The position numbers were made by a program, and so were the translations under genes. Positions 33,210-51,700 of a stretch of DNA of 64,000 nucleotides are shown in pieces. The notes beneath the pieces were generated by a model, which was not told the origin of the DNA, did not search any database, and saw only the letters and a list, made by a program, of their open reading frames with translations. Source of the stretch: Moheibacter sediminis (lineage in GTDB: Bacteria > Bacteroidota > Bacteroidia > Flavobacteriales > Weeksellaceae); assembly GCF_900176425.1 (NCBI RefSeq), contig NZ_FWXS01000006.1, positions 1 through 64,000 on the forward strand, written 5' to 3'. The first letter of the stretch is position 1, and the number at the start of each line of letters is the position of its first letter.

Positions 33210-36200
33210 TTGTTGCAGTTGCGGTATAAAATAGTATTACTTTTTTGTTCGGTTTTGATTTCGTTTGCATGGGGGCAGGTTCCTTCGTGGCAAAATGACA
33301 ATTCCCGAAAAGATTCTATCGTAATTTCAGATACGGTTCAACTCAACGCAAATGTGATTTTGCCGGAAAAATTTTTTGTTTTTGATGAATTGGGTCAACC
33401 CATTTCTGATTTATTTTACCGCGTTGATCATGCTTCCGGAAAAATATATTTTGACGAGTCTTTAAAAAACCAAAAGGCAACCGTATACTATTTCATTCAT
33501 CCCGATTTACAGCAAACTGCGTATTATTCAAAAGACACAGCGCTGATAGTCGAACGCGAAAAAGAAAATATTTTTTATTCGTTCGGAGACGAAAAAATAA
33601 AAGAAAAAAAACCATTCGACGGACTCAATAGCCGTGGCTCTCTCGTTCGGGGAATCCGTTTCGGGAACAACCAAAGTGCTTCTACGCAATCTTCTTTGGA
33701 TTTGCAATTGTCAGGAAATTTAACCGAAGAAATAGGCATCAATGCGGTGATTTCTGACAACAATGTTCCGATTCAAGCGGATGGTTATACGCAGCAACTC
33801 CAGGAATTTGACAAAGTTTATGTCGAATTGTTCAATAAAAATTCAAGGGTTCGTGCGGGACATATTGATTTGGTTCAGGACAAAGATTTCTTTGGGAATT
33901 TTACACAAAAAGTAACAGGATTGCAAATCGGAACTGAACTCACGCACGCCAACGATTCCAAAACCAGAATCCAAGTTGCAGGAAGTACAACACGAGGGGA
34001 ATTTGCCACGCGGAAAATCATCGGTCAAAACGGAAATCAAGGTCCATACCGGCTTTCAGGGAATAACAATGAATTGTTTATTATCATCGTTTCAGGAAGT
34101 GAGCGTGTTTACCTCGATGGTGTTTTGCTGACGCGTGGCGAAGACAATGATTATGTAATTAATTATAATACAGGAGAATTAACTTTTACCAGCAATCGTT
34201 TAATTACTGCGAATTCAAGGATTACGGTGGAATACCTTTATGCAAACAGAAGTTATTCTCAGTTTTTAATTTATGGAGGAATTGAACATGAGTCGGAAAA
34301 ATTTAAGATTGCAGGACATTTTTATTCCAACGGTGATTCCAAAAATAATCCTTTGAACGATAATCTGAGTGATGCGGATAAACAAATTCTAGCGGATGCC
34401 GGAAACAACACGGCTGAAATGTTCAATACTACTGCCGTTCCAACAGCGTATGACCCTGATCGGAATTTGTACCGAAAAGTTTTGATTGATGGTGTTGAAA
34501 TATTTGAATATTCGGATGATCCGGAAGAAGAATTGTTTTATGTAACTTTTACTTTGATGGGTAATAATCGAGGAAATTATATAAAAAGTGACATTGAAGT
34601 GAATGGGAAAATTTTTCAATATGTTCCGCCTGTTGGAGGCATTCCGCAAGGAAATTACGAACCGATTCGCCAATTGGTTCCGCCCAAAAGACTGCAGCTT
34701 TATACGATTAATTCTGCTTATAAGTTGAAAAACAATGGTTTGATTGGATTGGATTTGGCGATGAGCAATGAAGATTTAAATCTATTTTCGGACATTGATG
34801 ACAATCAAAATGTAGGTTTTGGAGGAAGAGTCTACGGCAACAGAAAATTCCAAATGAAAGATTGGGGGCTCAATCCTTTGTTTGAACTATCATACATCCA
34901 GAAAAATTTCCAATCGATTCAGCGGTTGAGAACCGTGGAATTTACGCGTGATTTCAACCTCGACCAAGAACTCTCCGAAGTCAATCAAACTTATTTGAAA
35001 GTCGGTTTGCAAGCCAATTACAGAGATTCATTAAACTTAAATTATAATTTACATTATTTAAACAATGAAAACCAGTATACGGGTTTTAAAAATGATTTGA
35101 ATTTGAATTATAAATCCGGAAAGAATTTTGCACAAGCGAATTTCTCTTTGTTGAATTCAGAAAAACATTCTATTCTTACCCCTGATTTAGATCCCGACAA
35201 ATCGCAATTTTTACGCTATCAGGCCATTGCAAAGAGAAAGGTTTACAAATCTTTTTGGATCGGTGCGCAATACATGGGAGAGCGAAATGAAATTGAAGAC
35301 AGAATCAACGCTCCGGAAGGAAACAATTTATCTGATTTGTCTTTCCAATGGGATGAAATCCAAGCATTAGCGGGAATTGGAGATTCGACCAAGATGAATG
35401 TTCAGCTTACTTTTTACAACCGCCGTGATGATTCCATTCGTTTGGGCGTGATGGAAAGAATCTCAGTTTCAAATGGTTTAATTCTTCAGTCTAAATTAAT
35501 TAATAAATCTGACCACCGACTCGATTTGACAGGGCATTACCGTTCCGTAAAATACGAATTTGAGGACATGGCAAACGAAGATTACATCACCGGAAACATT
35601 CGCTGGTACAAAAGTTTTTTCCGTGGCGGAATGGTCGTAAATGCTTTTTATGAACTGGGAAGCGGAGTAGAGCCGCAACGTGAATTTGAATATGTGAAAG
35701 TGACGGACGGCATGGGAATTTACAAATGGACAGATTACAATGGTGACGGCATTGAACAATTGGATGAATTTGAAGTTGCTGAATTTCAGGACCAGGCAAA
35801 TTATGTCCGCGTTTTTACCAATACGATGGAATATATAAAAACCAACAAAAACGGATTTAACTTCTCTGTCAGATTAAAACCCAAAGAATTAATTAATTCT
35901 GAAAATGAATTCCTGGGAAGATGGACACTTCAGGGGTCTTTGCAATCCAACAATTCACTCAAAAAAGAAGGAAAAACCCTCGAATGGAATCCTTTTACAA
36001 GTTCAGAAGAATTGTTGAGTAAATCCCAAACTTTACGTACCAATTTGAATTTCAACCAAAGCAGCAAATACAAATGGTCTTCTTCCTATACTTATTCACA
36101 ACAAGAATCCAAAAGTTTCATCTTCACCGGAGGCGAATCACGCGATTCCCGAAGCCATTTGCTCAATGCGAAATACAAACCTTGGGAAAATTTCTTTTTC

Positions 36201-36665
36201 TTAGCTGAGGGTGAAAATATAGTGACAGTAAGCGATTCGGATTTGTTTGCTTCCCGCAGATTTACCATAGATGCATGGCGGGTGAAGCCACAGATAACAT
36301 ATCAGGTTGAAAGCAAGTTCAGCGCATCGGCTCATTTTACCTACCAAAATAAATCGAATCGAACCGGAGAAGAATTGCTTAAACAGTCCAACATGGGAGC
36401 GGAAGTGCAGTGGAATGACGGTGCTAAATCTTCTTTGTTGGGAACTTTTAATTACATCAAAAATGATTTTACCGGAAATGGTCAATCCGTTGTCGGAAAC
36501 CAAATGATGGAAGGTTTGAAGCCGGGTGACAATTTCGTGTGGCAATTGTTATTGCAGCGTCAGTTGAATTCATTCTTAAGTGTAAATGTAAGTTACGACG
36601 GACGTAAAACGGAAGAAAATAAAACTATCCATACCGGAAGCGTGCAGATACAGGCGAGGTTTTAA
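33210..36665 (+). CDS. Large outer-membrane beta-barrel-like protein with EF-hand-type loop
   Basis: This 1151-aa protein has a signal peptide (about 1-22) and then beta-rich sequence with frequent aromatic strand ends, finishing in a terminal strand ending QIQARF, as in outer-membrane barrels. The segment VSGSERVYLDG and then GEDNDYVINYNTGELTF (about 290-330) resembles a motif I associate with SprA-type T9SS proteins, but this protein is half their length. DYNGDGIEQLDE near residue 845 fits a calcium-binding EF-hand loop. I do not know its function. No plug domain or TonB box is seen. The frame opens with TTG-TTG; no ATG precedes the signal peptide. Confidence 0.7.
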   Translation: MLQLRYKIVLLFCSVLISFAWGQVPSWQNDNSRKDSIVISDTVQLNANVILPEKFFVFDELGQPISDLFYRVDHASGKIYFDESLKNQKATVYYFIHPDLQQTAYYSKDTALIVEREKENIFYSFGDEKIKEKKPFDGLNSRGSLVRGIRFGNNQSASTQSSLDLQLSGNLTEEIGINAVISDNNVPIQADGYTQQLQEFDKVYVELFNKNSRVRAGHIDLVQDKDFFGNFTQKVTGLQIGTELTHANDSKTRIQVAGSTTRGEFATRKIIGQNGNQGPYRLSGNNNELFIIIVSGSERVYLDGVLLTRGEDNDYVINYNTGELTFTSNRLITANSRITVEYLYANRSYSQFLIYGGIEHESEKFKIAGHFYSNGDSKNNPLNDNLSDADKQILADAGNNTAEMFNTTAVPTAYDPDRNLYRKVLIDGVEIFEYSDDPEEELFYVTFTLMGNNRGNYIKSDIEVNGKIFQYVPPVGGIPQGNYEPIRQLVPPKRLQLYTINSAYKLKNNGLIGLDLAMSNEDLNLFSDIDDNQNVGFGGRVYGNRKFQMKDWGLNPLFELSYIQKNFQSIQRLRTVEFTRDFNLDQELSEVNQTYLKVGLQANYRDSLNLNYNLHYLNNENQYTGFKNDLNLNYKSGKNFAQANFSLLNSEKHSILTPDLDPDKSQFLRYQAIAKRKVYKSFWIGAQYMGERNEIEDRINAPEGNNLSDLSFQWDEIQALAGIGDSTKMNVQLTFYNRRDDSIRLGVMERISVSNGLILQSKLINKSDHRLDLTGHYRSVKYEFEDMANEDYITGNIRWYKSFFRGGMVVNAFYELGSGVEPQREFEYVKVTDGMGIYKWTDYNGDGIEQLDEFEVAEFQDQANYVRVFTNTMEYIKTNKNGFNFSVRLKPKELINSENEFLGRWTLQGSLQSNNSLKKEGKTLEWNPFTSSEELLSKSQTLRTNLNFNQSSKYKWSSSYTYSQQESKSFIFTGGESRDSRSHLLNAKYKPWENFFFLAEGENIVTVSDSDLFASRRFTIDAWRVKPQITYQVESKFSASAHFTYQNKSNRTGEELLKQSNMGAEVQWNDGAKSSLLGTFNYIKNDFTGNGQSVVGNQMMEGLKPGDNFVWQLLLQRQLNSFLSVNVSYDGRKTEENKTIHTGSVQIQARF

Positions 36666-36837
36666 TCTTTTTTAATTCATTTACTTCGTTAAATTTTACA
36701 TGAATGATGGTCGATCTTGGGATTTTATTGTTTAACAGAACATAAAGTAACAGTGAGCAAAACGGAAGATGAAGTAATGTGAGCGGAGTGCGCAGTAGTG
36801 GGGGGCATATTTATAAAGCTGATTGATTATATTGTTT

Positions 36838-37533
36838 TCATCCCCAGAAGTATATTTTCATTATTGAATTTAAAATAATTGTACTTCTGGAAAAACAAAT
36901 CGTTCTCCGGTTGAGCCTTTTTAAATGTGTTCGGAGCGTCAAATGTTTTCTTTCAATGGAATTTGTCCCAAAGCGTTTTACTTTATGAATATTCTTCTCA
37001 ATCAGAAACTTATAGTTTTTTAATTCATCAGTGTAAATAAACTTAGCCTTGCTTAAATTTAAAGTACTTATAACAGATTTCAGCGTTTGATTGGTTCTTC
37101 TGCCTATATTGAATGAAACAATCCCTTTGCTGATTCTCTCCAGTGCACAAACTATCCAGATCCTTCTTTGTTTGCTGCCGATGTAAGTACAGAGTTCATC
37201 GACTTCATATTCTTTTCTCATGCTGATAATAGGCGGTTTGATGTTGCGGGAAATGGAAAGAATTCTTTTCAATAAAGTGGTGGTTGAAATATTTAAAACT
37301 CTGGCAGTACTTCTGATTCCCAAACCTTCTTTGGTAAGAATAATAATTTGTTGATTTAAGTCGGTTTGGTATGCATTGTAAGTATAAAAATCTATAAACC
37401 GTTTCTTGCATGATTTACATAAAAATTGCTGTTTGCCCGTTTTTGTTTTACCATTCTTTATAATTTGATTTGCTTTACAATTAGGGCAGATTACTGTATC
37501 ACTAACTTTGAAACACTTGGTCTCGGTTTTCAT
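36838..37533 (-). CDS. IS1-family-like transposase
   Basis: This 231-aa single-frame transposase has an N-terminal zinc-ribbon (CPNCKANQIIKNG, then CKSCKKRF), a helix-turn-helix (GIRSTARVLNIS), and a DDE-type catalytic region with YEVDELCTYIG, FIYTDELKNY and an ending IERKHLTLRTHLKRLNRRT that matches the InsB end of IS1. Unlike classical IS1 it needs no frameshift. It appears intact. Terminal inverted repeats and target duplication could not be defined by eye. It lies 112 bases from a broken RHS fragment. Confidence 0.85.
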   Translation of the reverse strand: MKTETKCFKVSDTVICPNCKANQIIKNGKTKTGKQQFLCKSCKKRFIDFYTYNAYQTDLNQQIIILTKEGLGIRSTARVLNISTTTLLKRILSISRNIKPPIISMRKEYEVDELCTYIGSKQRRIWIVCALERISKGIVSFNIGRRTNQTLKSVISTLNLSKAKFIYTDELKNYKFLIEKNIHKVKRFGTNSIERKHLTLRTHLKRLNRRTICFSRSTIILNSIMKIYFWG

Positions 37534-37565
37534 ATTTTCAGGCGGTTTAAGATGCTAAAAATAGA

Positions 37566-37590
37566 AAGAGTGGACATAACGTCCACTCTT
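37566..37590. repeat. Perfect palindromic hairpin upstream of the transposase
   Basis: AAGAGTGGAC and GTCCACTCTT are perfect 10-bp arms around ATAAC. It lies 33 bases before the transposase start on the minus strand. It may guard against read-through transcription into the element or mark its end. Confidence 0.75.
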
Positions 37591-37645
37591 AAATTAAAAT
37601 ATTATGAAAATTATTTTCTGATTTTCAGTGATTTAAAATAAATAT

Positions 37646-37738
37646 TTATTTCATCACTAACTCTGATACATCGCCCATATAATGTCGCCAGCCAAAGTCG
37701 TACATACCGGTCTCCTGCAGTCTCTTTGTTGTACTTGT
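37646..37738 (-). pseudogene. Relic of an RHS core (C-terminal boundary fragment)
   Basis: On the minus strand this frame reads KRLQETGMYDFGWRHYM, nearly identical to KELQETGMYDFGWRHYM of the RHS protein upstream, then GDVSELVMK and a stop at 37646-37648. The DNA across about 60 bases is also closely similar to 39677-39740. The rest of the core (IGRW to DPDG) and any tail are missing. It is a decayed core-boundary piece, as expected from past swapping of RHS C-terminal cassettes. It lies between the second immunity-like gene and the insertion sequence. Confidence 0.8.
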
Positions 37739-37794
37739 ATTAAAGAACGTCTCGTTTTTAATTTCTGATCGACTGAAAATCAATATTAAATTTA

Positions 37795-38259
37795 TTAATC
37801 TGGAATGCAACTGTTTTTAAGGTAATCTCGAACAGGAAACTTTCTGATGCTATGCACATCAATGGTATCTCCATTATCTATTTCTATAATTTTTTTATTA
37901 TTATCAAGATTAATTACAAGTTTGGAGCCTATCTTATACTGATGATGGCGAGGTCTTCTCAAATCTTTCACAGAGTAAATCATTACTGCTAAAGAGTCTT
38001 TTACTCGTATAAAAAATCTATTATTGTCGATTTGATTATAATCTTTATAATTTGATTCTTCTACTCTTAGACAAGCTATTCTTAGAGATGTATCTGATTT
38101 TATTTCAATAATTTCCCCCTTCAATTCTAAATCAAAATTTTCGATAAAATTCTGATGATCTTTATGCATGGGTGTTGATTCTACGCCCTTAATGATGAGA
38201 AATATTATTAATATAAAAGCTAAAAAAATCCCTAAAATTATTATTATAATTTTTTTCAT
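37795..38259 (-). CDS. Membrane-anchored immunity-like protein, copy 2
   Basis: This 154-aa protein has a strongly hydrophobic N-terminal helix (about 4-25) without a lipobox or clear cleavage site, then a soluble domain probably outside the cytoplasm. It includes FDLELKGEIIEIKSD, RVKDSLAVMIYS and FPVRDYLKNSCIP. It aligns without gaps to the neighbour at 38286 (about 64 percent identity by hand count). I recognise no family. Position, small size, duplication and AT-rich composition behind an RHS tail suggest an immunity protein (inference). It starts 26 bases after the first copy. Confidence 0.7.
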   Translation of the reverse strand: MKKIIIIILGIFLAFILIIFLIIKGVESTPMHKDHQNFIENFDLELKGEIIEIKSDTSLRIACLRVEESNYKDYNQIDNNRFFIRVKDSLAVMIYSVKDLRRPRHHQYKIGSKLVINLDNNKKIIEIDNGDTIDVHSIRKFPVRDYLKNSCIPD

Positions 38260-38285
38260 ATATACTTCCTATTTCCATTAATAAA

Positions 38286-38750
38286 TTAGTTTGGGATGCA
38301 ACTGTTTTTAAGATAGTCTCGAACTGGAAAAGTGTCGATACCATATATATCTATGGTATGTTTTTCTTCCAGTTCAATAATTTTTTTGTTATTATTATGA
38401 TTAATCAAAAGTTGTGATCCAATTCTATATTGATGATGTCGAAACTTGTTTACATCCTTTGTAGAATAAATCATAACTGCTAATGAATCTTTTACCCTCA
38501 TAAAAAACCTATTGCCTTCAACTTTATAGTATTCTTTATAATTTGAATGTTCTACTTTTAAACAAGCAATCCTTAATGAACCATCTGACTTAATATCAAT
38601 AATTTCACCCTTTAATTCCAAATCGAAATTATTTACGAACTTTTGATATTCTTTGTACATTGGTGCAGATTCAACTAGTAAATTGAGTAGAAATCGTACT
38701 ATTCCAAATAATACTATTAGCACCACTATTATTAGTACTATTTTTTTCAT
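38286..38750 (-). CDS. Membrane-anchored immunity-like protein, copy 1
   Basis: This 154-aa paralogue of the gene at 37795 has the same architecture: N-terminal membrane helix (about 4-26) and a conserved extracytoplasmic-type domain with LKGEIIDIKSD, NRFFMRVKDSLAVMIYS, RHHQY and YLKNSCIPN. It begins only 5 bases after the RHS stop, so it is co-transcribed and probably co-translated with the RHS protein. A membrane-anchored protective protein would fit a toxin acting in the periplasm or membrane. No enzymatic motif is visible. The role is inferred from context only. Confidence 0.7.
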   Translation of the reverse strand: MKKIVLIIVVLIVLFGIVRFLLNLLVESAPMYKEYQKFVNNFDLELKGEIIDIKSDGSLRIACLKVEHSNYKEYYKVEGNRFFMRVKDSLAVMIYSTKDVNKFRHHQYRIGSQLLINHNNNKKIIELEEKHTIDIYGIDTFPVRDYLKNSCIPN

Positions 38751-38755
38751 ATATT

Positions 38756-39565
38756 TTATTTCCAGCCACTTCCTAAAGGCCCCTGAACAACATCATCTAC
38801 ATTAACTTCGACATTAAATCTAAATATTCCTGCACGCACATCACCTCCTAAAATAAACATCGGAGTTTTACCTCCATTATTGTTTAGGTCAACCATTCGG
38901 TTAGCTGGGTATATCGGACTGTTAAGCGTAGTTCCAGAGAACCACCCATTTTCTTTGCTATAGACACTTCCACTGGCTGCTTCTCTACTCACACCAGACA
39001 AGCTTCCACTAACAGTAGCTGTTCCAAATTTAATGTTATCAATGAAATTGGTTTCGAAAATATTAATAGAACCCTCAGCACCAACTCCAGCTATAGAGCC
39101 ACCTAAATCAAATTCACCTATCGCCAAATTTAAATCTCCCTCATTTTTGTCGTAAGTAAGAGAAAATGCAGTAACACCTAAAGATACATCTATCGCATTT
39201 CCTATTTTAAAATTTTTAACTCCAACTCCTAAACCTATACCAAAATCATTTAAATTAAGAAAGTCTGGTTCAGTCAAAGCAACTAGATCTCCGCTTTCTG
39301 TAAATGAAGAAACCGCTCCATCTATTATAATTCTAGGTTTAGGTTTATACCCAAGGAATTTCCTGATATTAGTCCATGTTCTACCAAACCAAGATGGTCC
39401 GGGATTATAATTACTATAGTAAGTAGTTACAGGACCATCACCAAAGCTACCTCCACTTTCCAGATGAGATAACAGACTGCCATAACTTCCGCCCTCTGCA
39501 AAGTATCCTAATACTGATTGTATCTCTGAGCCTGTAAATATAAAGGCATCATCCGTTTCTGTATA
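38756..39565 (-). other. Variable C-terminal tail region of the RHS protein
   Basis: This segment encodes residues 951-1219, after the DPDG end of the RHS core. It is richer in A and T than the core. It contains a WFGRTWTNIRKFLG segment, then alternating glycine strands (IGLGVGVKNF, LGGSIAGVGAEGS, VSGSLSGVS). No catalytic triad, nuclease or deaminase motif is apparent, so its activity, if toxic, is unassigned. Confidence 0.65.
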
Positions 39566-42415
39566 TCTACCGTCAGGATCTCTGAAAGAAACAGGATTAT
39601 TTAAAACATATCCGTAGGGAGATGTTGAGTGATACATTTCCGATAGCTGATCCATTCCGTTCCATCTTCCGATGTCCGGCATATAATGTCTCCATCCGAA
39701 GTCGTACATTCCTGTCTCCTGAAGCTCTTTTCCGCTGTATTTGTAATTGTAAGGCACGGAAAGCGGACTGTAACCCGGCATGCTTAGCTGGTTGAGGTGG
39801 TTCATGCCGAAGGCATAGTATTTATTGTTGTCCAGTACTCTGGCAGCCCCCGTCGTTGTATGTCTCGTATAGCTCATGCGTACGTTCCCGGTCTGGTCTT
39901 TGTACTGGTAAATATAACGTTTATTCTCATAATCATAGAACCCTTCGGAAGTAGGGAAGAAGACGAGGTCGAATGTCAGCGGATCTCCCCCTCCGGGGTT
40001 TCCGGGCGCTTTTTCTGCAAAGGTAAATGCTTCCGGTTCCGATGCGACTTTGGCTGACTCTAAGGACTCGCTTTCAGAAGTACGGAACATACCTGCGATC
40101 AGGTCTGAGTTGGGTGTGGAATACTGAAAACCGTCCAGGTAAAGCGTAGTGATGTCCACGTTGCTGCCGTTGTGGTTGATTGTCAGTGTCTTTCTTAGTT
40201 TTGTGCCGTCCGCACTGTAAAGAAAAGTTGTAGTATTGCCATCTGCAATGGTGGTGGGGAGGTTGAGGAAGTTATAAGTAATATTGGTAATTCCCTTGTC
40301 GGGCATCGCTGTCATGTTGCCGTTGATGTCATATTGTATGGTTCCGTTTCCTCCTTCGTAACCGTTTGCATTTCCCGTTTGGTCATTGATATTGGTCAGC
40401 CTGTTTCCGTCATAAGCGTAGAAAAGATTGTCTATAAGTCTTGCCACGGTTTCCTGCGGATGCTTGAACGAGGTACGGTACATGGATTTGATGTTTCCGC
40501 GGTTGTCATAGCTGACGATCTCACTATTGCTTTTTTGGTAAGGGTCACCATGCGGCTGGAAAAGCCCGGCTGTCAACCTGCCTGCTGCGTCATATACATA
40601 TCCGTATCTTTCGATGATGCCCGATGATGTTGCCCATGAAGTTTCTGCGATGGTTCCGTTGTAGCGTGGTTTGACTTTTTGTGCGGAGAAGTTATTATTG
40701 GGAGTTTCCACACCTTCTCTTTGGTTGTAGTTGATCTTGAAGGCAAAGAGGTCTGTTCCCAGATTTGCAGGATTGTTGACCGAAGTCAGCCAGCCGCGGA
40801 TATTGTAAGTATAATCTAACTGCTGCAGGTTGTTTCCTACTTTTTTACTGGTTATGCGACCGAGGTTGTCATAAGTGAGTTCTGAAAGCAGCTCTTCCGG
40901 ATGGTTGTCTACTTTGTGGAAGTGATGGGTCAAGAGGTTTTGTGCAGAGTAGATGTAGCGCTGCTTTATTTCTATTTCTGCAGCATTCGTTGTTCTTTTA
41001 TGGTTCACTTTCGATTCCCTGATATTTCCGGGAAAATCCAGTTTCATCTCTGTCTTGCTGTAGCCGTTAAGGTGGTTGGTCTTGTGGCTTCCGATAAGGC
41101 GCTCTTTGGCATCATACCAGAAAACAGTCTTGTTCCATTTTTCATCTTCCATATTTCTGACATATGATGCAGTAAGCATTGATTTGGTGCTGTGGGTAGA
41201 TGTAATATCAGAGGATAGTGTTGATTGTTCGTAAATCTGTGCAGGTCTGGAAGGTACTCCTGCCGGGTATTCATCATAATAATTGACACTCAATACATCG
41301 GTAACTGAAGTAGGATAGGCATTTTTAGTATAGTAAATCAAAGTGAAAGAGTTGTTGAACCCTGTTGCACTTTTGGATTCAAACACAGCAATTGAGCTGT
41401 TGGCACCTGCCTGTTCCGTATTTCTTTCTCCTCCGGTGCACAGTCCGGTGTAGATAACTCTTCCCAGTTTGTCGTATTTCACAAATGCCCATTTGCCTTC
41501 CGATTTCATTTTGGTATCGGTGGACATGATTACGCGGTCTTCCCTGTCATAGACATAAAATTCTTTCTCTTTTCCCGGAAGCTTTTTTTCAATTAATCTG
41601 CCCATTGCATCGTACTTATACTGGTACAATACTTTGTTTTTAGTGTCAGTTGTCAGAGGGTTTTCTCCCGAGTTCAAAGGTGGGATGATGTATGTCAGCT
41701 GGTTGTACTGGTTATAAACATAATAAGTGTCCAGATTGACAGCCCCGTTTTTTATACGTGTCATCAGAACTTGTCCGCTTCCGTTTTTGTATTCCATGGA
41801 AATGTTTCCGTCTTCGTCCTTTGCGGTCGTTTTATGAAGTGTATTTACGGCATAGAACCCACTTTGTGTAAGGGAATTTTCAAAAGTAGAGGTATTCAGT
41901 GCCGACACAAATTTTTTGACAGTGTTGGCTTCATTAAATCCATATGTAAATTCTTTGGTATTCTGCCCGTCCATCTTCCAGTCAGTTCCGGGGTTTGCTG
42001 TTTTTATAACACGGTTTTGAGGGGAATCATCATATTTTACCTCTGCATAAGCATTTGTAGTACCATGATATAGATTGATGCCCGATTCCGAAACAGAATG
42101 AATCGCTCCGTTCTGGCTGTTTACGGAAATTGGAAGATATTGCTTGGTCTGCTTTGCGCCCTGCTCAGAGAAATAGGTACTTACAAGGTCTTGTCCGGGC
42201 TGGATGCCGTTAATGACTATGTTTTGTTTTACTCTTCCCAATCCATCGGTATAGGTTACATTTTGGATCGATTGCCCACTGTTCATATTACTTACAGTTA
42301 CGCCTTCCAGAAATACTCTCGTATATGTGTAGGTCTGATTAGGACTGAAGTTCTGTGAGTATAGTTTACCGGAGATGCTCAATAGCATCAATAAGGTGAT
42401 ATATAGGTTTTTCAT
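38756..42415 (-). CDS. RHS-repeat protein with N-terminal DUF6443 and variable glycine-rich tail
   Basis: This 1219-aa protein (from the ATG at 42415) has a signal peptide (KNLYITLLMLLSISGKLYSQ) and a DUF6443-type domain with VTYTDGLGRVKQ. RHS/YD repeats follow (YDRE-R-, YDAMGRLIEK and so on) to about 900, then the RHS core end ETGMYDFGWRHYMPDIGRW, SPYGYVLNNP and DPDG near 950. The last 269 residues are a different, glycine-rich, beta-type domain with no recognised toxin motif. The family forms shells around C-terminal effectors. An ATG at 42460 overlaps the upstream stop but would hide the signal peptide; I prefer 42415. Confidence 0.85.
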   Translation of the reverse strand: MKNLYITLLMLLSISGKLYSQNFSPNQTYTYTRVFLEGVTVSNMNSGQSIQNVTYTDGLGRVKQNIVINGIQPGQDLVSTYFSEQGAKQTKQYLPISVNSQNGAIHSVSESGINLYHGTTNAYAEVKYDDSPQNRVIKTANPGTDWKMDGQNTKEFTYGFNEANTVKKFVSALNTSTFENSLTQSGFYAVNTLHKTTAKDEDGNISMEYKNGSGQVLMTRIKNGAVNLDTYYVYNQYNQLTYIIPPLNSGENPLTTDTKNKVLYQYKYDAMGRLIEKKLPGKEKEFYVYDREDRVIMSTDTKMKSEGKWAFVKYDKLGRVIYTGLCTGGERNTEQAGANSSIAVFESKSATGFNNSFTLIYYTKNAYPTSVTDVLSVNYYDEYPAGVPSRPAQIYEQSTLSSDITSTHSTKSMLTASYVRNMEDEKWNKTVFWYDAKERLIGSHKTNHLNGYSKTEMKLDFPGNIRESKVNHKRTTNAAEIEIKQRYIYSAQNLLTHHFHKVDNHPEELLSELTYDNLGRITSKKVGNNLQQLDYTYNIRGWLTSVNNPANLGTDLFAFKINYNQREGVETPNNNFSAQKVKPRYNGTIAETSWATSSGIIERYGYVYDAAGRLTAGLFQPHGDPYQKSNSEIVSYDNRGNIKSMYRTSFKHPQETVARLIDNLFYAYDGNRLTNINDQTGNANGYEGGNGTIQYDINGNMTAMPDKGITNITYNFLNLPTTIADGNTTTFLYSADGTKLRKTLTINHNGSNVDITTLYLDGFQYSTPNSDLIAGMFRTSESESLESAKVASEPEAFTFAEKAPGNPGGGDPLTFDLVFFPTSEGFYDYENKRYIYQYKDQTGNVRMSYTRHTTTGAARVLDNNKYYAFGMNHLNQLSMPGYSPLSVPYNYKYSGKELQETGMYDFGWRHYMPDIGRWNGMDQLSEMYHSTSPYGYVLNNPVSFRDPDGRYTETDDAFIFTGSEIQSVLGYFAEGGSYGSLLSHLESGGSFGDGPVTTYYSNYNPGPSWFGRTWTNIRKFLGYKPKPRIIIDGAVSSFTESGDLVALTEPDFLNLNDFGIGLGVGVKNFKIGNAIDVSLGVTAFSLTYDKNEGDLNLAIGEFDLGGSIAGVGAEGSINIFETNFIDNIKFGTATVSGSLSGVSREAASGSVYSKENGWFSGTTLNSPIYPANRMVDLNNNGGKTPMFILGGDVRAGIFRFNVEVNVDDVVQGPLGSGWK

Positions 42416-42459
42416 GTGATTCTTTTTTATAGATACTTGATACGATAGGATTTTATACA

Positions 42460-45369
42460 TTACTGAATGTAATTTTTGTATTTATTTTCCTTGATCACAT
42501 TGTGGTTGATGTCTTCTACTCTGATCAGGCGGTTGGCATTGTCGTAATAATAGTATTCCTTGTTTCCGCTCGGTGTGGTCATGCTCTTGATTCCTATTAA
42601 CGGATCGTATGTATAAGTGGTAATCTGATAATCTTTGAAATTGGAATTGAGCCTGAATGTGTCCAGTCTTATTCTGAAAGCTTCCTCTGTGGCATCATTT
42701 ATATCAAGATTTGACCTGGTGTAAATATCCAGACTTTTATAAGCCTCCGAAGTATTTGGCAGTCCATAAGCCTGCATCACCTGTGCATAGGTTGCTCCTT
42801 CTATTTTAGCGATCAATAATGTACTGTTGTAACCATAAATGAATGTGGTTGCAATTCCGGTTTTGCTTGTGGTCTGCAGTACGTTGCCCATCGTATCATA
42901 TAGTTCATTTTTCTCTTCTGAGTTCAGCGCATTATTGATTCCGAATTTCTTGATAGATGAAGGGAAGAAATTATCTGTATGGTCAAATTTCATCTCTACC
43001 TTACCTGTTTCTATGTTGTTTTGCTTTTGAACAACCTCGAGGGGTACAGAAAACATACTTGCATTTAAAAGTTTTGTATTGTTTTTTTCAAGCGCATATT
43101 TGTAGGTAACTTCAGATACGGTTCCGTCTGCAGTGGTTTTCTTCTCTGACATCAGGTTATTGTTTTGCAGGTTGAACCCTCTTTCTACTGTAACTTTCAT
43201 CGAGTTGCCCTGCGCATCGTAGTCATAGTCTTCGGTTTTTATCTTTTCTGCGAATAATTCTTGGGTGTACATCATATACGGATCTCCAGCCGGATGAGCA
43301 TATGGGCAGTTCTCACATTGTACTTCATATGGATAAAGCTGTGAAACATTATAAGATGGGAGCGTATAGTCAAATACTGTAGAGTGTTTGATTATATTAT
43401 TTGCATTATAGATTTCTTGTTTATCAAGGATTCCTTTCTTTCTGAGGTTATAATTTGGCCATATCGTTTTGTTCATCAATGTAGGATGGGGATCAGTAGG
43501 GAAGTCAAAAGGTGTTTTATAGTAATATTTTGTATAGCCTCCCTTGTCACTTTCCGTAACCTTTATATTTTTATAAATGATTGCTTCTTTCTGGTCATCT
43601 CCTACTGCTACACCACTTGATATTCCAGGCTCGTCAAAACGGGTGTAGTCATAGTTTACTATTTTAGGATTAGTTCCATAAGAATTGCCTTCCCAACTAT
43701 TGTAAGTGATTTTTTCTATTCTCACGCCTGAATTGGGAAGCGTTTTCTCATTGATGTAAGGAGGAGAAGTATAATGCTTTTCAAAAATATCGAAATATCC
43801 GTTGCCTCCTGAACCGGTTATTTCTATGTATGCACTCCCATTGGAAGGAATAACATAAAATTTACTATTAAGATCTTCGGTATCATTATGAGGTCCGTAA
43901 GAATTATAGATAGCGTTTTTTACGTTGTAAGCAAGTCTCGGAGGAGGGAAAACACCAGGTTGCAAAGGTTCATGCTCCTGCTCTTCGTAGGGGTATGTTT
44001 CATATTTTACAAATCTAATGTAAATGCGTGTATTAGGTGATTTTTGGAATCCTGTTAGGGGATATATCTTAGTGTTCCTAGTATCAAAATCAATAGATTG
44101 TACATGTTCTAAATATTGAATTTCAGGGTCAGAAAAATCCATCGGATTTTGCATTTTTTGAATGTAAGCAGTCGTATTTTTATCTTCAGACTTTAACTTA
44201 TTTACCCGGAATTGATAATCAATTTTAGCTTTGGTGGGCAGAATAACGGATTCCAACACACCAACTAAAAGAGAATTAGGATCATCATCTGTATAATATT
44301 TGTGGTTAATTGGAAGATAATCTTTCCAAATATTTGAGGGGCCATAAATATTAGTGGTCAAAAGGCGATAGTTTAGCGTAGTTCTTTCAAGAAGATTGGA
44401 ACTTTGATCTAATCTATTTATTCTTGTTAGTATTCGAGAATTGAAAGACCTTATTTCAGGGAAATCATCATATTCACTATGTAGATCATAGAAGCTGTAA
44501 CCAGAAGGTTCAATGTTTAAGCTATATTTTGAAACAAAATTATCTTTATGATCTTTTAGGGTAAAAACATTTAAAAAGTATTTATCATGAAAATCAAATG
44601 TATACCCCCCGTCTCCATGATCTATGGTAATTGAACCATAATCTGTTTGTATTTTTTCAGGTAAATAAATCCATCCGTCAATAATAGTATTGTTGCTATG
44701 TTCTTCATAACTGGTATATTTTTTATTAGTGTAAGTTACTATCTGCCTATTTTTAGCATCAAGAATCTTTGTTATATAAAAAGTATTTCTCATATCACGC
44801 CCTTGCTCTACAGAAAGTTTATAGTAATCGTGGTCTTGAAAATAGTATTTATAGCCTTTACTATCTGTAATAGTAAAAGATTTTACGGGTTTAGTACTAT
44901 AACCTACTATTTCTCTCTCAAACTCAATTTTCACATTGCTTGAGGTTAGTTTTACGACATGGTATGTATCATTAGGAAAAGTTCCATGTTTCTCAAATTT
45001 AAAGCTGCCCTGCTCTCCATTAAGTGTATAGAAGTAAATATCATCCCAGTTCCCGTCAGCAGGATCAACTTCATCTATCCAGCTGCTCATGACTTTTCGG
45101 GTGATTGTAAAATTGCTACCTGACAGTATCCAGTTTTTGGCAACCTGACCGCTGTATTCGCCCATCCTGAATGAATTAGGATTGTAACTAAGACCCAGAC
45201 TTATATTGAAATCTTTGGTGGCAGGTAAGTCAACAAGTGGGAATGATATGTCAGGAACACCTGTTTGGTTAGCGACAGGAGTGAGCACAGATGCCGAATT
45301 GGAATTGTCCTGGCTTTTCAAGGACATACTAATTACAAAAGCAAATAGGATATATAGATTTTTCATCAT
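42460..45369 (-). CDS. RHS-associated secreted partner protein
   Basis: This 969-aa protein has a signal peptide (MMKNLYILFAFVISMSLKSQ). The N-terminal region DISFPLVDLPATKDFNISLGLSYNPN resembles the start of Bacteroidota RHS-associated and SpvB-like proteins. A long beta-rich middle follows, and at the C-terminus there are a few YD-type repeats (TYTYDPLIGIKSMT, YYYDNANRLIRVED). It lies between a T9SS protein (1-base gap) and the RHS protein, so it likely forms part of the same shell or delivery complex. No catalytic motif is visible. The 3' part is GC-richer than the 5' part. Confidence 0.75.
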   Translation of the reverse strand: MMKNLYILFAFVISMSLKSQDNSNSASVLTPVANQTGVPDISFPLVDLPATKDFNISLGLSYNPNSFRMGEYSGQVAKNWILSGSNFTITRKVMSSWIDEVDPADGNWDDIYFYTLNGEQGSFKFEKHGTFPNDTYHVVKLTSSNVKIEFEREIVGYSTKPVKSFTITDSKGYKYYFQDHDYYKLSVEQGRDMRNTFYITKILDAKNRQIVTYTNKKYTSYEEHSNNTIIDGWIYLPEKIQTDYGSITIDHGDGGYTFDFHDKYFLNVFTLKDHKDNFVSKYSLNIEPSGYSFYDLHSEYDDFPEIRSFNSRILTRINRLDQSSNLLERTTLNYRLLTTNIYGPSNIWKDYLPINHKYYTDDDPNSLLVGVLESVILPTKAKIDYQFRVNKLKSEDKNTTAYIQKMQNPMDFSDPEIQYLEHVQSIDFDTRNTKIYPLTGFQKSPNTRIYIRFVKYETYPYEEQEHEPLQPGVFPPPRLAYNVKNAIYNSYGPHNDTEDLNSKFYVIPSNGSAYIEITGSGGNGYFDIFEKHYTSPPYINEKTLPNSGVRIEKITYNSWEGNSYGTNPKIVNYDYTRFDEPGISSGVAVGDDQKEAIIYKNIKVTESDKGGYTKYYYKTPFDFPTDPHPTLMNKTIWPNYNLRKKGILDKQEIYNANNIIKHSTVFDYTLPSYNVSQLYPYEVQCENCPYAHPAGDPYMMYTQELFAEKIKTEDYDYDAQGNSMKVTVERGFNLQNNNLMSEKKTTADGTVSEVTYKYALEKNNTKLLNASMFSVPLEVVQKQNNIETGKVEMKFDHTDNFFPSSIKKFGINNALNSEEKNELYDTMGNVLQTTSKTGIATTFIYGYNSTLLIAKIEGATYAQVMQAYGLPNTSEAYKSLDIYTRSNLDINDATEEAFRIRLDTFRLNSNFKDYQITTYTYDPLIGIKSMTTPSGNKEYYYYDNANRLIRVEDINHNVIKENKYKNYIQ

Positions 45370-45370
45370 T

Positions 45371-46990
45371 TTATTTCTTTACTAATTTTGAATTCACAGT
45401 TTTATTGGATGTTTTTACAGTAACTATGTAGACGCCGGCAGGTAAGACTTTGGTATCTACTTTTGTTACTGCATTTTTTGTGTTGAGCGTTTGTATCTTT
45501 CTTCCGCTCATATCATGAAGAAATATCTCTGCTTCTTCATTTTTTTCAAGTTCAAAGCCCAATTCTACATAGCAGTATTCATTTGCAGGATTAGGGTAGA
45601 TGCGGATATCATATTTCTCTACAAGCTCAGACAATTGCTTGTCTCCTAGTTTCAATATTTTCCAGTTTTCATCACCGGTTATATCTCCGCTTGTGCCTGC
45701 CAAGATATATGTGCCATCATTTTGCAACTTCGCTGTTACCAGATGTTCTTCTTTTTTTGCAGATTTGCCTTCTGTATGTTTTCTCCATTCTTCATTTCCC
45801 TTACTGTCAAGATAAAGCATCCAGAACTGTTCATCATTTTTTCGGACTCTCTCTTCTGCCTGTGTATAACCTCCCAGCAGATAACCCTTATCTAAGCTTT
45901 GGTTGTCCTGATTGGTTGTTCTGATTACATGCATGCTCATCAGTATGTCTTTCCCTCCTAAGCTGTAATTCTTCTGCCATATTTCGTTCCCTGAATGGTC
46001 CAATGATATCAACCACAAATCTGTTCCGTCAACAGCATCTTCTTTTTTATTGCCTGATGAGCCGCTTTTGCTTTCTCCTCCAATCAGATAACCTGTTTCT
46101 GTAAATACAATACTCTTGGGATAATCGTCTTTTTCTCCACCATATATTTTTTGCCATTCTATATTGGCATTTTCATCCAGCTTCACAACCCAATAGTCAC
46201 CCTCGCCGAAGCTATCCTGGCTCTTACCTCTAAGATTTTCTATAGAAGAAATAAATTCATTCCCGTCATTACGGTTCAAATTATCAACGTCTAGAACAAT
46301 ATCAGCAGACTTCATAGAAGTAGAATAAATGAGAATAGCAGCTCCGCCATCAGGTGTAGCTATCATATCTGTCACCTCATCTATAGTATCACCTCCTAGT
46401 ATGATTGTTTTTATAAGTTTTCCTTGTTCATTCAATTTTGAAACAAAAATGTCTTTTGACCCAAAAAAATGATTATTTGATTGAATGCTTCCTGCAAGAA
46501 AAAAGCCCTGATCGGTTGATTGGATAATACTCGAAGCTTCTTCATTATTCTGGGTGCCTATTGTTTTTTGCCACAATTCTTCTCCGCTTTCATCCAATCT
46601 TAAAATCCATACATCTGATCCGCCGGCATTCTTTTCTTTCTTATCGTGTGACTGATTTGAAAAAGAGGTTCCGGCTAGAATAAGCCCTCCTTCATTTGTA
46701 GAAACCACAGAGTGTAGGTAATCATTCTTGGCTCCTCCAAAGTATTTTTCCCACGATATCTCTCCATCCTGTAAAAGTTTTACAACATGATAATCATATC
46801 CATTATTTTCATTTTCAGAATTTTGATGGATAGAACTACCCGAAAGAACCATCTGGCGATCAGGGGTAAATGTCATGTCAGAAAGAATATTCTGCGTTGA
46901 TGATGCTATGTCTTTTTGCCAGAGAACTTCTTGGGCTGAAAGATTTAGTAAAGTACCTAGATATAATAGGCTTAAATATCTTTTTTTCAT
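45371..46990 (-). CDS. Secreted repeat protein with T9SS sorting domain, first gene of RHS operon
   Basis: This 539-aa protein has a signal peptide (1-19), then repeated units of about 50 residues with the theme GG-KNDY-hSV and GG-ILAGTS, IW-KTIGT and WQK-YGG. These look like blades of a beta-propeller (about 20-440). A type A T9SS sorting domain ends the protein (about 460-539, IRIYPNPANEYCYVEL). It should be exported to the cell surface by T9SS. It leads the operon with the RHS partner 1 base downstream, suggesting it anchors or presents the RHS proteins, which lack their own sorting domains (inference). Confidence 0.85.
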   Translation of the reverse strand: MKKRYLSLLYLGTLLNLSAQEVLWQKDIASSTQNILSDMTFTPDRQMVLSGSSIHQNSENENNGYDYHVVKLLQDGEISWEKYFGGAKNDYLHSVVSTNEGGLILAGTSFSNQSHDKKEKNAGGSDVWILRLDESGEELWQKTIGTQNNEEASSIIQSTDQGFFLAGSIQSNNHFFGSKDIFVSKLNEQGKLIKTIILGGDTIDEVTDMIATPDGGAAILIYSTSMKSADIVLDVDNLNRNDGNEFISSIENLRGKSQDSFGEGDYWVVKLDENANIEWQKIYGGEKDDYPKSIVFTETGYLIGGESKSGSSGNKKEDAVDGTDLWLISLDHSGNEIWQKNYSLGGKDILMSMHVIRTTNQDNQSLDKGYLLGGYTQAEERVRKNDEQFWMLYLDSKGNEEWRKHTEGKSAKKEEHLVTAKLQNDGTYILAGTSGDITGDENWKILKLGDKQLSELVEKYDIRIYPNPANEYCYVELGFELEKNEEAEIFLHDMSGRKIQTLNTKNAVTKVDTKVLPAGVYIVTVKTSNKTVNSKLVKK

Positions 46991-48758: not shown

Positions 48759-51700
48759 ATGAAAAAAACACAGAGACTTTTTTTACTAACCATGCTTTTC
48801 GCTCTTTCGGGCTGGCTTCATGGTCAATTATTACAACCTTTCAAAGACGACGTCGAGTCGCACGCTGACTTTCAGCAAAACGGTCTTGTAGGATGGACTT
48901 CACTTGATGTAGATGGCCTGGTTACAGCAGGCCCATTTCAAAGTTTCCCAGGCAAGGGAGGTCCTTTGGGATTTATCGTTTATAATCCTTCTCAGACAGA
49001 TCCTGTCAATACACTTCCGGGTTATGACCCTCGTTCCGGTCAAAAATATTTTGCAAGTATATCTTCTTATTCCGGCCCGAGCAATGACTGGTTGATTTCA
49101 AGTGAATTGGCGGCGCATACGGGTGGTACTTTTTCTTTTTATGCTAAAAGTGCTGCAGATTTTGCAGGTTTAGACAGGTTTAAAGTTGCGTATTCAACTA
49201 CCGGTTCAAATCCCGCAGATTTTACATTTGTCAATGCTACACCCACTACAACTACAATGAATTGGGCAAGGTATCAATTTACGATTCCAAATAATGCAAA
49301 ATATGTGGCGATAAACTGTGTTTCACAAGCCTTTATGATGTTGGTAGATGACATAGAATTCACGCCAACTGTAGCGGGTACAGCACCCAATACGATTACC
49401 AATTTCTCTTCTGAAACTCAGATGAATTCTGGATTTCAGGCTGTTTTCAACTGGACAAATCCAACTCTTGACAATGCTGGAAATGCTTTGAGCAGCATGA
49501 CAGGTGTAAAAGTTTACAGAGGAACGCATCCTATGAATTTGGTTGAAATTGCCAATCTTCCTTCAGCTGTAGGCCAAGCGATGACTTATACCGATAATTT
49601 ACCGGGAGAAGGTTCTTATACCCACAGATTTGTTCCCTATAATGCTTCCGGAAATGGTGTTGCTTACAATACGCCCATTACATTTTTCGGATATGAAACC
49701 GTTCCTGGAGCACCGGCTAATATAACTTTCACACAAAATGGAAGCTTGCAAACTGTAATTTCTTGGAATGAAGTAAATTATGGCCAAAATGGTGGGGTTT
49801 TACAAAATCCGGTAGTAGGCTATAAAATTACCAGAACTTTAGGAAGCAGTACCGTAACTTTAGCAGAAATGCATACAAGTACTACTTTCACGGAAACAAC
49901 CATTCCGGCATTTAATTTATACACTTATACAATCACTGCAATGACCAGCCCGACAAATCCGGGAATACCTGCTGCTGTTCCGGCTTATTCGGGAATGAAT
50001 GCAAATCAGGTTTCAGTCACAAGCGGAAACAGCCCTTCAGATCAGCCATTTGAATTGAGCCGAGGTTCTATCATCTCACAGAGTATTTACAAGCCTGAAG
50101 AAATTGGCGGCAGCGGATTGATTACTTCTATTTCCTATTTTGGGAACTTGGGAGCCACCAGCACTGCACGTTATAAAATTTACATGAGTACTACGAACCG
50201 TAATACATTTGGTACAACTACCAACAATGCAGTTTGGGAATATTTTGGTAATCAAAAACTTTTGTTTGATGGAAATATTCAATTTGTTGCAGGACGAAAT
50301 GCGACGACCATTGAGTTCGATCAGCCTTTTTATTACGATGCCAGCTCTAATCAAAATGTGATTATCACCATTGTGAAACCATTATTGAATAATCCTCCTT
50401 CTGTCAATCCTCGCGAGTTTTATAATACTCCGGTGGAAGGGATGCGGACTTATTTTTCTATTGGATATTCTGTAGATTTAAGTGTGATCACATCTCAGCC
50501 TGCGGCATGGACGCTCGAAGAAGTTATTACAATTCCAAGTATTGTGGTTGAAAAAACTACTGATTTCGCCAGTGTTTCCGGAACAGTTACATTATTTTCA
50601 GATGGTTCTCCAATGGAAGGCGTAACAGTTTCCATTACTCCAGAAGATTCAAATGCTTATCAAACAGAAACAACTATAACCAATGCGTCAGGTGGTTATC
50701 AAATCCCTGCATTGATTCCTGGAAATTATGTGGCAACTTTCAGCAAGAATACATTTAATACTGTTGAAATTGAATTCACTGTAACTCCAAATCAACAATT
50801 AGTTTTAGATGCTGTTCTTGACAATTCACTTCCAATCTTGATTTCCGGAAGAGTCGTTGATGTTAACGGAAACGGTTTAGAAGGAATTAATTTGAATTTA
50901 ACTGGATTCTCTGAATTTAATACTGTAAGTGATGCCGCAGGGAATTTCACATTAGAAGCATTTGCAGATAAACAATATGAATTGGAAGCGGCTCATCCGT
51001 TATTTATTTCTGAAACTGTAACATTTACAAGTGAAGATAATGACCACACAATTGACACTATAACATTGGAATTGGCATTGAACAAACCAGGAAATGTCGT
51101 TGCAGTAAATAATGAAGGTGTAGGTGAAGTGGAATGGAGAGTGCCGGTTGGGCAATACAATGAAACCATGTTAGGTTGGGGAAGCTTCATTACAACCGGA
51201 GATGCTTGGGGTAATGGCGGCGATCCGTTTATTGCTGGAGTTAGATTTGAAACTTCTGATCTCCACGCTAAATTAACTGAAGGTGCAGAATTGACACACG
51301 TAAGAGTTTATTTTGCCAACAATGCCAACGCTGTCATCAAGATATTTGAAGGTCCAAATGCAGAGCAACTTGTACATTCACAGCCGGTTTCAATACCAAG
51401 TGAAGATTGGTATGTAATTGAATTGACGCAATCCTTGGCAATTGATTTTACCAAAGAATTATGGATTGGAGTAGAATTCCTTGCGGGACAATATGGTGCT
51501 TATCCGATTGGATTGGATGACGGGCCAAATGCGCCTGGCAGAAAGGGAAGTATGAAATACGAAAACGGCGCGTGGCTTGGTATGAGTTTGACCAATAAAA
51601 ACTGGAATATCTATGGTATAGCCAATAACACGATGGAGGCAGATCCGGCGGGTTATAAAGTTTACAGAAGTCCTGCTACTGAAGAAAACTGGACTGAACT

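What the first reader, a model, noticed from the sequence alone, without database searches (positions are those of the whole stretch)
37646..46990. T9SS-linked RHS locus: five-gene operon with effector-like tail and tandem immunity-like genes
Seen: a minus-strand run with gaps of 1, about 0, 5 and 26 bases encodes a T9SS-sorted repeat protein, an RHS partner, a DUF6443 RHS protein with an unrelated 269-aa C-terminal tail, and two paralogous membrane-anchored 154-aa proteins, then a broken RHS fragment. Known: RHS shells carry variable C-terminal toxins followed by cognate immunity genes. Inference: this is a polymorphic-toxin or surface-effector system in which a T9SS protein presents RHS proteins that have signal peptides but no sorting domain. 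I know of no described pathway with this exact layout.
Basis: partly seen in the sequence, partly recalled or inferred. Interest (0 to 1): 0.85.

Follow-up and report, generated by a model that had tools for sequence, protein, structure and literature searches.

The report
T9SS-linked RHS toxin–immunity operon
A Flavobacteria-type bacterium carries an operon that looks like a swappable antibacterial toxin packed in a two-part protein shell, with two guard proteins and a surface-secreted partner that may carry or hold the shell outside the cell.

Summary
A minus-strand run (46990-37795) encodes an SBBP-repeat protein with a T9SS sorting domain, a signal-peptide RHS partner, a DUF6443 RHS protein with a 269-aa tail, and two 64%-identical membrane-anchored 154-aa proteins; an RHS scrap cut off by IS1 follows. 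Relatives show a polymorphic toxin locus: in 17 aligned RHS proteins invariant columns end at residue 964, the boundary seen in TccC-type shells, and the tails differ. Tox-REase-9 (own genome), Ntox43 and Tlde1 each occur in 1 of 17. Orphan tip/neighbour cassettes exist in the genome; one pair matches a Kaistella operon's pair. The order SBBP-T9SS, partner, DUF6443-RHS recurs in 11 of 12 relatives with readable upstream sequence (all Chryseobacterium or Kaistella) and one same-genus species, but two RHS genes of another same-genus species stand alone. Relatives were found only for the first ~58 tail residues; ~210 have no detectable family or fold. That the 154-aa proteins are immunity is inferred; T9SS delivery is unproven. 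T9SS adjacency of rhs genes (Apibacter) and of TANFOR toxins is already in print. New here: the conserved three-gene order, the split TcB/TcC-like arrangement and an uncharacterised toxin/immunity candidate.

The parts
45371..46990 (-). SBBP/delta-60-type repeat (beta-propeller-like) protein, 539 aa, N-terminal signal sequence, C-terminal T9SS type A sorting domain (residues 464-539)
   Evidence: signal sequence read by eye; relatives at this place 37-55% identical over the alignment (Aquimarina row left out)
42460..45369 (-). RHS partner, 969 aa, signal sequence, RHS-type C-terminal ~150 aa conserved; no sorting domain listed
38756..42460 (-). DUF6443 RHS protein, 1234 aa; probable true start at 42415
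39569..39820 (-). RHS-associated core (residues 881-964), ends ...NNPVSFRDPDG, boundary equivalent to that of TccC/YenC2 shells
   Evidence: invariant columns of A4 end at G964
39389..39568 (-). linker (residues 965-1024) shared with two genomes of another genus that carry a different toxin end
38759..39388 (-). private C-terminal candidate toxin domain (residues 1025-1234), glycine-rich, no family found
   Evidence: lower G+C than shell
38286..38750 (-). candidate immunity protein A, 154 aa, N-terminal membrane helix and predicted beta-barrel-like domain
37795..38259 (-). candidate immunity protein B, paralogue of A (64% identity)
37676..37739 (-). scrap of RHS core (82% identical DNA to 39680-39745), start of a displaced cassette cut off by IS1
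36820..37675 (-). IS1-family element (transposase 36838-37533), related copies beside two other RHS cassette arrays of this genome; outer ends approximate

Best explanation
A polymorphic toxin operon of the RHS kind whose shell is split over two exported proteins and which is genetically tied to a T9SS-secreted beta-propeller-like protein. Inferred working: all three large proteins enter the periplasm by Sec. The partner and the DUF6443 RHS protein assemble into a closed RHS cocoon, as TcB and TcC do, and the core cuts off the tail at the DPDG boundary inside it. The T9SS-sorted protein binds the cocoon and takes it through, or holds it on, the outer surface. On contact the ~210-aa tail is delivered to a neighbour and acts in its envelope; the two membrane-anchored 154-aa proteins protect the producer on the periplasmic side of its inner membrane. 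Supported by data here: recurrent gene order, variable tails, cassette turnover. Inferred: cocoon assembly, cleavage, T9SS export, toxicity of this tail, immunity function of the 154-aa proteins.
For: RHS proteins: DUF6443 in 17 of 17, invariant columns at residues 36-964, none in the tails (the window's own included). Tips: Tox-REase-9 (E 1.5e-33, own genome, contig C9), Ntox43 and Tlde1 (1 of 17 each, bearers not named); five tips of 24 carry HExxHxxGxxH. A same-strand frame follows within 150 b in 28 of 32 recognised RHS C-termini. Three of the four misses are orphan cassettes; the fourth (start of contig C7) has a 68-aa frame 3 bases behind that the script dropped. Of 7 pairs with homologous tips 3 have homologous next genes, of 371 other pairs 0; two further pairs agree (L066/L072; own orphan cassette and a Kaistella operon, tip 66%, neighbour 60%). 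Same linker, different end and different membrane proteins behind in G054. Orphan cassettes in own genome share DNA with each other or with the full gene. SBBP gene directly before the partner in 11 of 12 readable loci and in same-genus G009 (34% identical); TIGR04183 in 11 of 12 scanned. T9SS translocon gene sprA present. RHS 844-965 matches TccC3/TccC2/YenC2, ending at the tail boundary. SpvB and TcdB-mid domains in 1 of 14 partners, which I take to be the 2033-aa C9 one.
Against: No family, fold or homologue for the private tail (model failed, pLDDT 31). The 154-aa family was found in only 2 of 296 family genomes; in the other (G055) the tandem pair stands beside groEL (named by eye) with no RHS gene near, and G055 has no such tail, so tail and 154-aa genes are not seen together twice. 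4 of 7 homologous tip pairs have unrelated next genes. The SBBP gene is absent before the RHS genes of Aquimarina and before the second operon of Olleya; two long RHS genes of same-genus G055 (L091, L092) have neither partner nor SBBP gene before them. So neither is essential to all such RHS genes. The core match is not specific to toxin complexes: an Rhs protein and the T6SS effector Tse5 also match, more weakly. The short partner matched no solved TcB. Other SBBP repeat proteins in this genome (C11, C12) are not next to RHS genes.
Confidence: 0.66

Rival explanations
1. Polymorphic toxin locus as above, but the T9SS protein is an independent surface adhesin or receptor-recognition part that merely shares the operon; RHS proteins leave the cell by another route (lysis, vesicles, another secretion system) or stay in the periplasm.
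For: No sorting domain among listed matches of 17 RHS and 14 partner proteins; gene order is the only link; Aquimarina and Olleya loci lack the gene, and two G055 RHS genes lack both it and the partner.
Against: Tight, recurrent order and spacing in 11 of 12 readable loci and in same-genus G009.
Confidence: 0.24
2. RHS surface or adhesion structure, not a toxin; the tail is a variable recognition domain and the small proteins are accessory membrane proteins.
For: The private tail has no toxin signature and is glycine-rich with weak beta-type amphipathicity (z 2.05 against shuffles).
Against: Homologues carry nuclease and other named toxin domains at the same place with small genes behind; orphan tip/neighbour cassettes.
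Confidence: 0.06
3. Toxin tail real, but the 154-aa pair is not (or no longer) its cognate immunity: it may be an orphan immunity or unrelated envelope gene pair left by cassette turnover.
For: The pair occurs without an RHS gene in G055; it lies in an area of cassette and IS1 rearrangement.
Against: Gene A starts 5 bases behind the tail, the usual immunity position; its G+C is lower than that of 38 other window genes.
Confidence: 0.2

Closest known systems
Rhs genes of Apibacter beside T9SS type A sorting-domain genes (PMC8125069, passages seen)
   Same: rhs genes next to a T9SS-sorted gene; SpvB/TcdB-type shells; authors infer T9SS association and possible antagonism
   Different: no operon order, partner gene or DUF6443 split is set out in the passages seen; here a three-gene order recurs in Chryseobacterium/Kaistella
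TANFOR polymorphic toxins (PMC7073777, outline and passages seen)
   Same: Bacteroidetes toxins, most with signal peptides; T9SS-sorted genes enriched nearby (SprB/CTD gene directly upstream in one case); T9SS export hypothesised, not shown
   Different: RHS/DUF6443 shell and an SBBP protein here; no TANFOR match was listed
TcB/TcC cocoon of toxin complexes (solved TccC3, TccC2, YenC2)
   Same: core 844-965 matches and ends at the same boundary; SpvB and TcdB-mid domains in one of 14 partners, taken to be the C9 paralogue's
   Different: small immunity-like gene behind, signal peptides, a T9SS gene in the operon; short partner matched no solved TcB
Rhs tip displacement in Ornithobacterium hominis (PMC6421346, passages seen)
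   Same: large rhs gene with SpvB/TcdB signatures, variable ends, unique genes behind, displaced tips
   Different: no T9SS partner gene is mentioned in the passages seen; one >9 kb gene rather than a split pair
T6SS Rhs effectors with orphan cassettes (described in the passages of PMC8125069; Tse5 matches the core weakly)
   Same: RHS core, variable tip, immunity gene, orphan tips
   Different: no PAAR match among the listed hits; signal sequences by eye; T9SS gene in the operon

Membership tests
RHS polymorphic toxin | RHS-associated core followed by a non-conserved C-terminal tip | tested here: met
   invariant columns end at G964 in 17 RHS proteins
RHS polymorphic toxin | tips of homologues are known toxin domains | tested here: met
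   Tox-REase-9, Ntox43, Tlde1, each in 1 of 17
RHS polymorphic toxin | this locus's own tip is a toxin | tested here: inconclusive
   no family or fold
RHS polymorphic toxin | small gene directly behind, co-varying with the tip | tested here: met
   for the class: (4 of 7 homologous tip pairs do not agree); for this tip no second instance
RHS polymorphic toxin | orphan tip/immunity cassettes with core remnants | tested here: met
   remnant at 37676-37739
T9SS substrate | signal peptide plus CTD on the SBBP protein | tested here: met
   CTD; signal read by eye, no predictor run
T9SS substrate | CTD on RHS and partner proteins | tested here: not met
   no sorting family listed
T9SS substrate | export of RHS or partner depends on T9SS | not testable with these tools
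   experiment needed; sprA is present
Toxin complex (TcA/TcB/TcC) | TcC-type core at the tip boundary | tested here: met
   not specific, Tse5 also matches weakly
Toxin complex (TcA/TcB/TcC) | SpvB/TcdB-type TcB partner | tested here: not met
   not in P0002; met in 1 of 14 partners
Toxin complex (TcA/TcB/TcC) | TcA injector subunit beside it | not tested
   not searched
TANFOR polymorphic toxin | TANFOR domain | tested here: inconclusive
   no such family listed for P0002 or P0003, but I did not verify that the libraries hold a TANFOR model

The most novel reading that the evidence does not exclude
A new way out for polymorphic toxins: a T9SS-sorted beta-propeller-like protein acts as dedicated carrier or surface dock for a sealed two-subunit RHS cocoon that has no sorting signal of its own, so that T9SS (directly or by display) becomes an antibacterial delivery route in Chryseobacterium-type bacteria; its payload here is a new toxin family with a new, duplicated, membrane-anchored immunity family.
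Probability: 0.33. Interest if true: 0.8.

Novelty: new variant of a known kind. Interest (0 to 1): 0.56.

Why it matters
Whether T9SS serves interbacterial warfare is an open question stated in passages of both PMC7073777 and PMC8125069. A compact, recurrent three-gene order with modular tips gives a concrete, testable system for it: one gene predicted to be the carrier, two predicted to form the shell, and tips with known activities (for example the Tox-REase-9 operon of the same genome) to read out delivery. The tail and the 154-aa family add an uncharacterised toxin/immunity candidate.

Tried and rejected
Homologues of the private tail: in 296 family genomes only the own genome, once the linker matches in G054 and G110 are set apart. 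In 395 order genomes, one extra match at E 8e-4 (L081) lies in a ~390-aa frame beside a T9SS-tailed gene, no RHS context; rejected as chance. In 395 phylum genomes, extra matches at E 2e-3 and 3e-3; one read (L086, no RHS context) and rejected, the other (L087) has stops inside and was not read further. No match in plasmids or phages.

154-aa family: beyond own genome and G055, three matches at E 3e-4 to 1e-3 over the N-terminal half only, taken as membrane-helix noise and not read; none in plasmids or viral contigs.

Structure: tail model failed (mean pLDDT 31, single sequence). 154-aa model moderate (71; four sequences): helix plus small beta-barrel-like domain; no Foldseek match at E <= 0.001 in PDB or viral models; best VIA-align Z 5.6, within what that tool calls common. 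Co-folding of tail and small proteins was not possible.

Considered and rejected: T6SS Rhs effector (signal sequences by eye, no PAAR listed); CDI (no CdiA-type family listed); chance juxtaposition (gene order repeats in other species). The p-value 4e-6 is not to be taken at face value: pairs are not independent and two of the three agreeing pairs share L079. One search used only the C-termini that a motif search recognised (32); among others L070, L074, L091, L092, L095 and L096 were missed by it, and L062 has no end. At least two of its 28 next frames (behind L029:14119 and L030:3008) look like the continuation of a broken tip, not a separate gene. For one search, 5 of 29 next genes were dropped beforehand (another cassette or tip piece, or more than 150 bases away). 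The comparison with three same-genus species found none of the 15 window genes tested right of P0007 within ~15 kb downstream of its orthologue, so that side is species-specific or rearranged; this cannot be called a clean insertion and says little about function.
Full report
Observation. The first protein carries SBBP/delta-60-type repeats and a T9SS type A sorting domain. The third has DUF6443 at its N-terminus and an RHS-associated core ending at residue 964. Signal sequences on all three large proteins are read by eye (they end in SAQ, KSQ and YSQ); no predictor was run. Seven relatives begin at the counterpart of RHS residue 16, so its start is probably 42415. The fragment behind the small genes is 64 bp of RHS core, 82% identical to the gene's own core, ending at 37676; from 37675 on the sequence is shared (94-95% over 225-230 bp) with IS1 copies beside two other RHS arrays of the genome. 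I read it as the start of a displaced cassette whose rest is gone.

Composition. G+C falls from 0.433 in the RHS shell to 0.368 in the private tail and 0.27 in both small genes; 38 other window genes average 0.348, range 0.278-0.406. This step is usual for swapped tips and immunity genes (general knowledge).

Own genome. The genome (3.2 Mb, 27 contigs) holds more loci of the kind. Contig C9: end of a T9SS-sorted SBBP gene, a 2033-aa partner, a DUF6443 RHS protein whose tip is Tox-REase-9 (E 1.5e-33), a 146-aa gene and orphan cassettes. SpvB, TcdB-mid and FG-GAP families were found in 1 of 14 partners scanned; the table does not name the bearer, and I take it to be this one. Contigs C22 and C24 carry parts of a further set, and C7 and C8 begin inside tip/neighbour cassettes. 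Core pieces share 82-98% DNA identity with the C9 gene or with each other. One orphan C9 cassette, now frame-shifted, is 98.5% identical over 735 bp to the full gene's 3' region and then changes to another tip; that tip (66% over 73 aa) and its 96-aa neighbour (60%) match the tip and 97-aa neighbour of a Kaistella operon.

Relatives. A scan of genome contigs with the RHS protein gave 19 loci: 14 Chryseobacterium, 2 Kaistella, and one each of Aquimarina, Flagellimonas and Olleya. Twelve have readable sequence before the partner; in 11 of these a homologue of the SBBP-T9SS gene (47-53% identical over the matched part; two cut by the edge of the locus) stands directly before it. Ten of the 11 are Chryseobacterium, one Kaistella. 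The exception is Aquimarina: one of the 12 SBBP-position proteins scanned is a ribonuclease E/G, and I take it to be the Aquimarina gene; the sorting domain was found in 11 of 12 (that set is the window protein, nine loci with a whole gene, G009 and Aquimarina). The second of two tandem operons in Olleya has no SBBP homologue before it. The other seven loci are cut short before the partner, by a contig end or by what was held. The partner is split or repeated in L068, L078 and L079.

Same genus. G009 has the full order SBBP (34% identical), partner, RHS, 147-aa gene. Against the pattern, G055 has two long RHS genes (L091, 1199 aa; L092, 1084 aa) with neither partner nor SBBP gene before them, besides shorter pieces. 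In three same-genus species none of 15 window genes tested right of P0007, the operon included, lies within ~15 kb downstream of the P0007 orthologue.

Shell versus tip. In 17 aligned RHS proteins, the window's own included, the invariant columns lie between residues 36 and 964 and stop there. DUF6443 is present in 17 of 17; the other families listed are RHS repeats (11 of 17) and one case each of Tox-REase-9, Ntox43 (E 1e-17) and Tlde1 (E 9e-6); no T9SS sorting family is listed. The 14 partners scanned likewise show none. Residues 844-965 match the solved shells of TccC3, TccC2 and YenC2, with most matches ending at the DPDG boundary where tips begin; an Rhs protein and Tse5 match more weakly, so the core is not specific to toxin complexes. 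That such cores cut off the tip there is recalled knowledge. The window's short partner matched no solved structure, alone or as a profile, so a TcB-like role rests on the one SpvB/TcdB-type partner and on gene order.

Tips and neighbours. Of 32 RHS C-termini that a motif search recognised, 28 have a same-strand frame within 150 bases. Three of the four without are orphan cassettes; the fourth, at the start of contig C7, has a 68-aa frame 3 bases behind that the script dropped. At least two of the 28 next frames look like continuations of broken tips. All 19 RHS frames of 690 aa or more in that set have a next gene. Among 378 pairs of the 28, tips are homologous in 7, and in 3 of these the next genes are homologous too; of the 371 other pairs none has homologous next genes. 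Pairs are not independent, and 4 of 7 do not agree. Of 24 next genes examined (5 of 29 dropped beforehand), by a crude rule 9 look like lipoproteins, 6 have membrane segments and 9 show no export signal. Of five tips with HExxHxxGxxH, four have a lipoprotein-like neighbour by that rule; the Tox-REase-9 tip has one without export signal.

The window's tip. Residues 965 to about 1024 are a linker found again (36% identity) in two genomes of another genus, G054 and G110, whose matching stretches are nearly the same. There the end is different and hydrophobic, and the gene behind is an unrelated membrane protein; in G054 two such genes follow in tandem. For residues 1025-1234 I found no relative in 296 family, 395 order and 395 phylum genomes (sets overlap) beyond marginal matches rejected as chance, nor in plasmids or phages, and no Pfam or NCBIfam family. 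The structure model failed. Beta-type amphipathicity is weakly above shuffles (z 2.05). Its activity is unknown; an envelope target is inferred from the membrane-anchored neighbours.

The 154-aa proteins. N-terminal helix followed by a small beta-barrel-like domain (mean pLDDT 71), no significant fold match. Relatives: one tandem pair in the same-genus species G055, next to groEL (named by eye) and without an RHS gene within the 18 kb read. G055 has other RHS genes but not this tail. An orphan immunity pair would look like this; so would a gene pair with no tie to the toxin.

Mechanism and status. Best reading: a polymorphic toxin with a two-protein exported RHS shell and a T9SS-sorted protein in the same run of genes that carries or docks it. 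The genome has the T9SS translocon gene sprA and dozens of T9SS-type tails. Shown: recurrent gene order, modular tips, cassette turnover. Inferred: co-transcription, assembly, cleavage, export, killing, protection.

Literature. T9SS-sorted genes beside TANFOR toxins (PMC7073777) and beside rhs genes in Apibacter (PMC8125069) are in print, both with T9SS delivery as a hypothesis. Ornithobacterium rhs tips are described in PMC6421346. PMC12645872 reports 27 RHS genes more expressed in one Apibacter raozihei strain than in another after contact with cultured cells, three of them called T9SS effectors. PMC12419801 lists T9SS among the delivery hallmarks of some polymorphic toxins. Passages only were seen in all five, plus the outline of the first. 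DUF6443 is in no paper of the library, T9SS with YD repeat in none. I found no paper that sets out the three-gene order (search listings; open-licence papers only).

Noticed in passing
window 36820-37675; L029 15551-15970; L031 1426-1883: Related IS1-family copies sit beside three RHS cassette arrays of this genome (94-95% DNA identity over 225-230 bp); the window copy abuts the RHS scrap.
   Followed up: partly
L030 1-6473 (contig C7), L029 11341-15386 (contig C9): Arrays of RHS tip/neighbour cassettes with repeated core pieces.
   Followed up: partly
L066, L069, L073, L079: Metalloprotease-like tips (HExxHxxGxxH) with mostly lipoprotein-like neighbours in Chryseobacterium; the two scanned gave weak matches to metzincin-type families.
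   Followed up: partly
L033 11805-12712: Tandem pair of the 154-aa family beside groEL in a same-genus species, without an RHS gene nearby; possible orphan immunity locus.
   Followed up: partly
L091 423-4022, L092 4952-8206 (G055): Two long RHS genes of a same-genus species, related to the window's and to contig C24's, with neither partner nor SBBP gene before them.
   Followed up: no
window 33210-36665: 1151-aa protein with a weak, below cut-off match to SprA; conserved in three same-genus species (70-78%), no Pfam family above cut-off.
   Followed up: no
window 48759-53096: 1445-aa T9SS-sorted protein with cleaved-adhesin and carboxypeptidase-regulatory-like domains; like the other window genes tested right of P0007, not found within ~15 kb of the P0007 orthologue in three same-genus species.
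   Followed up: no
L088, L036, L090 (ends of contigs C8, C16, C26): Three contigs end inside SBBP genes that follow a ~480-aa gene of similar C-terminus; repeated sequence there probably broke the assembly.
   Followed up: no
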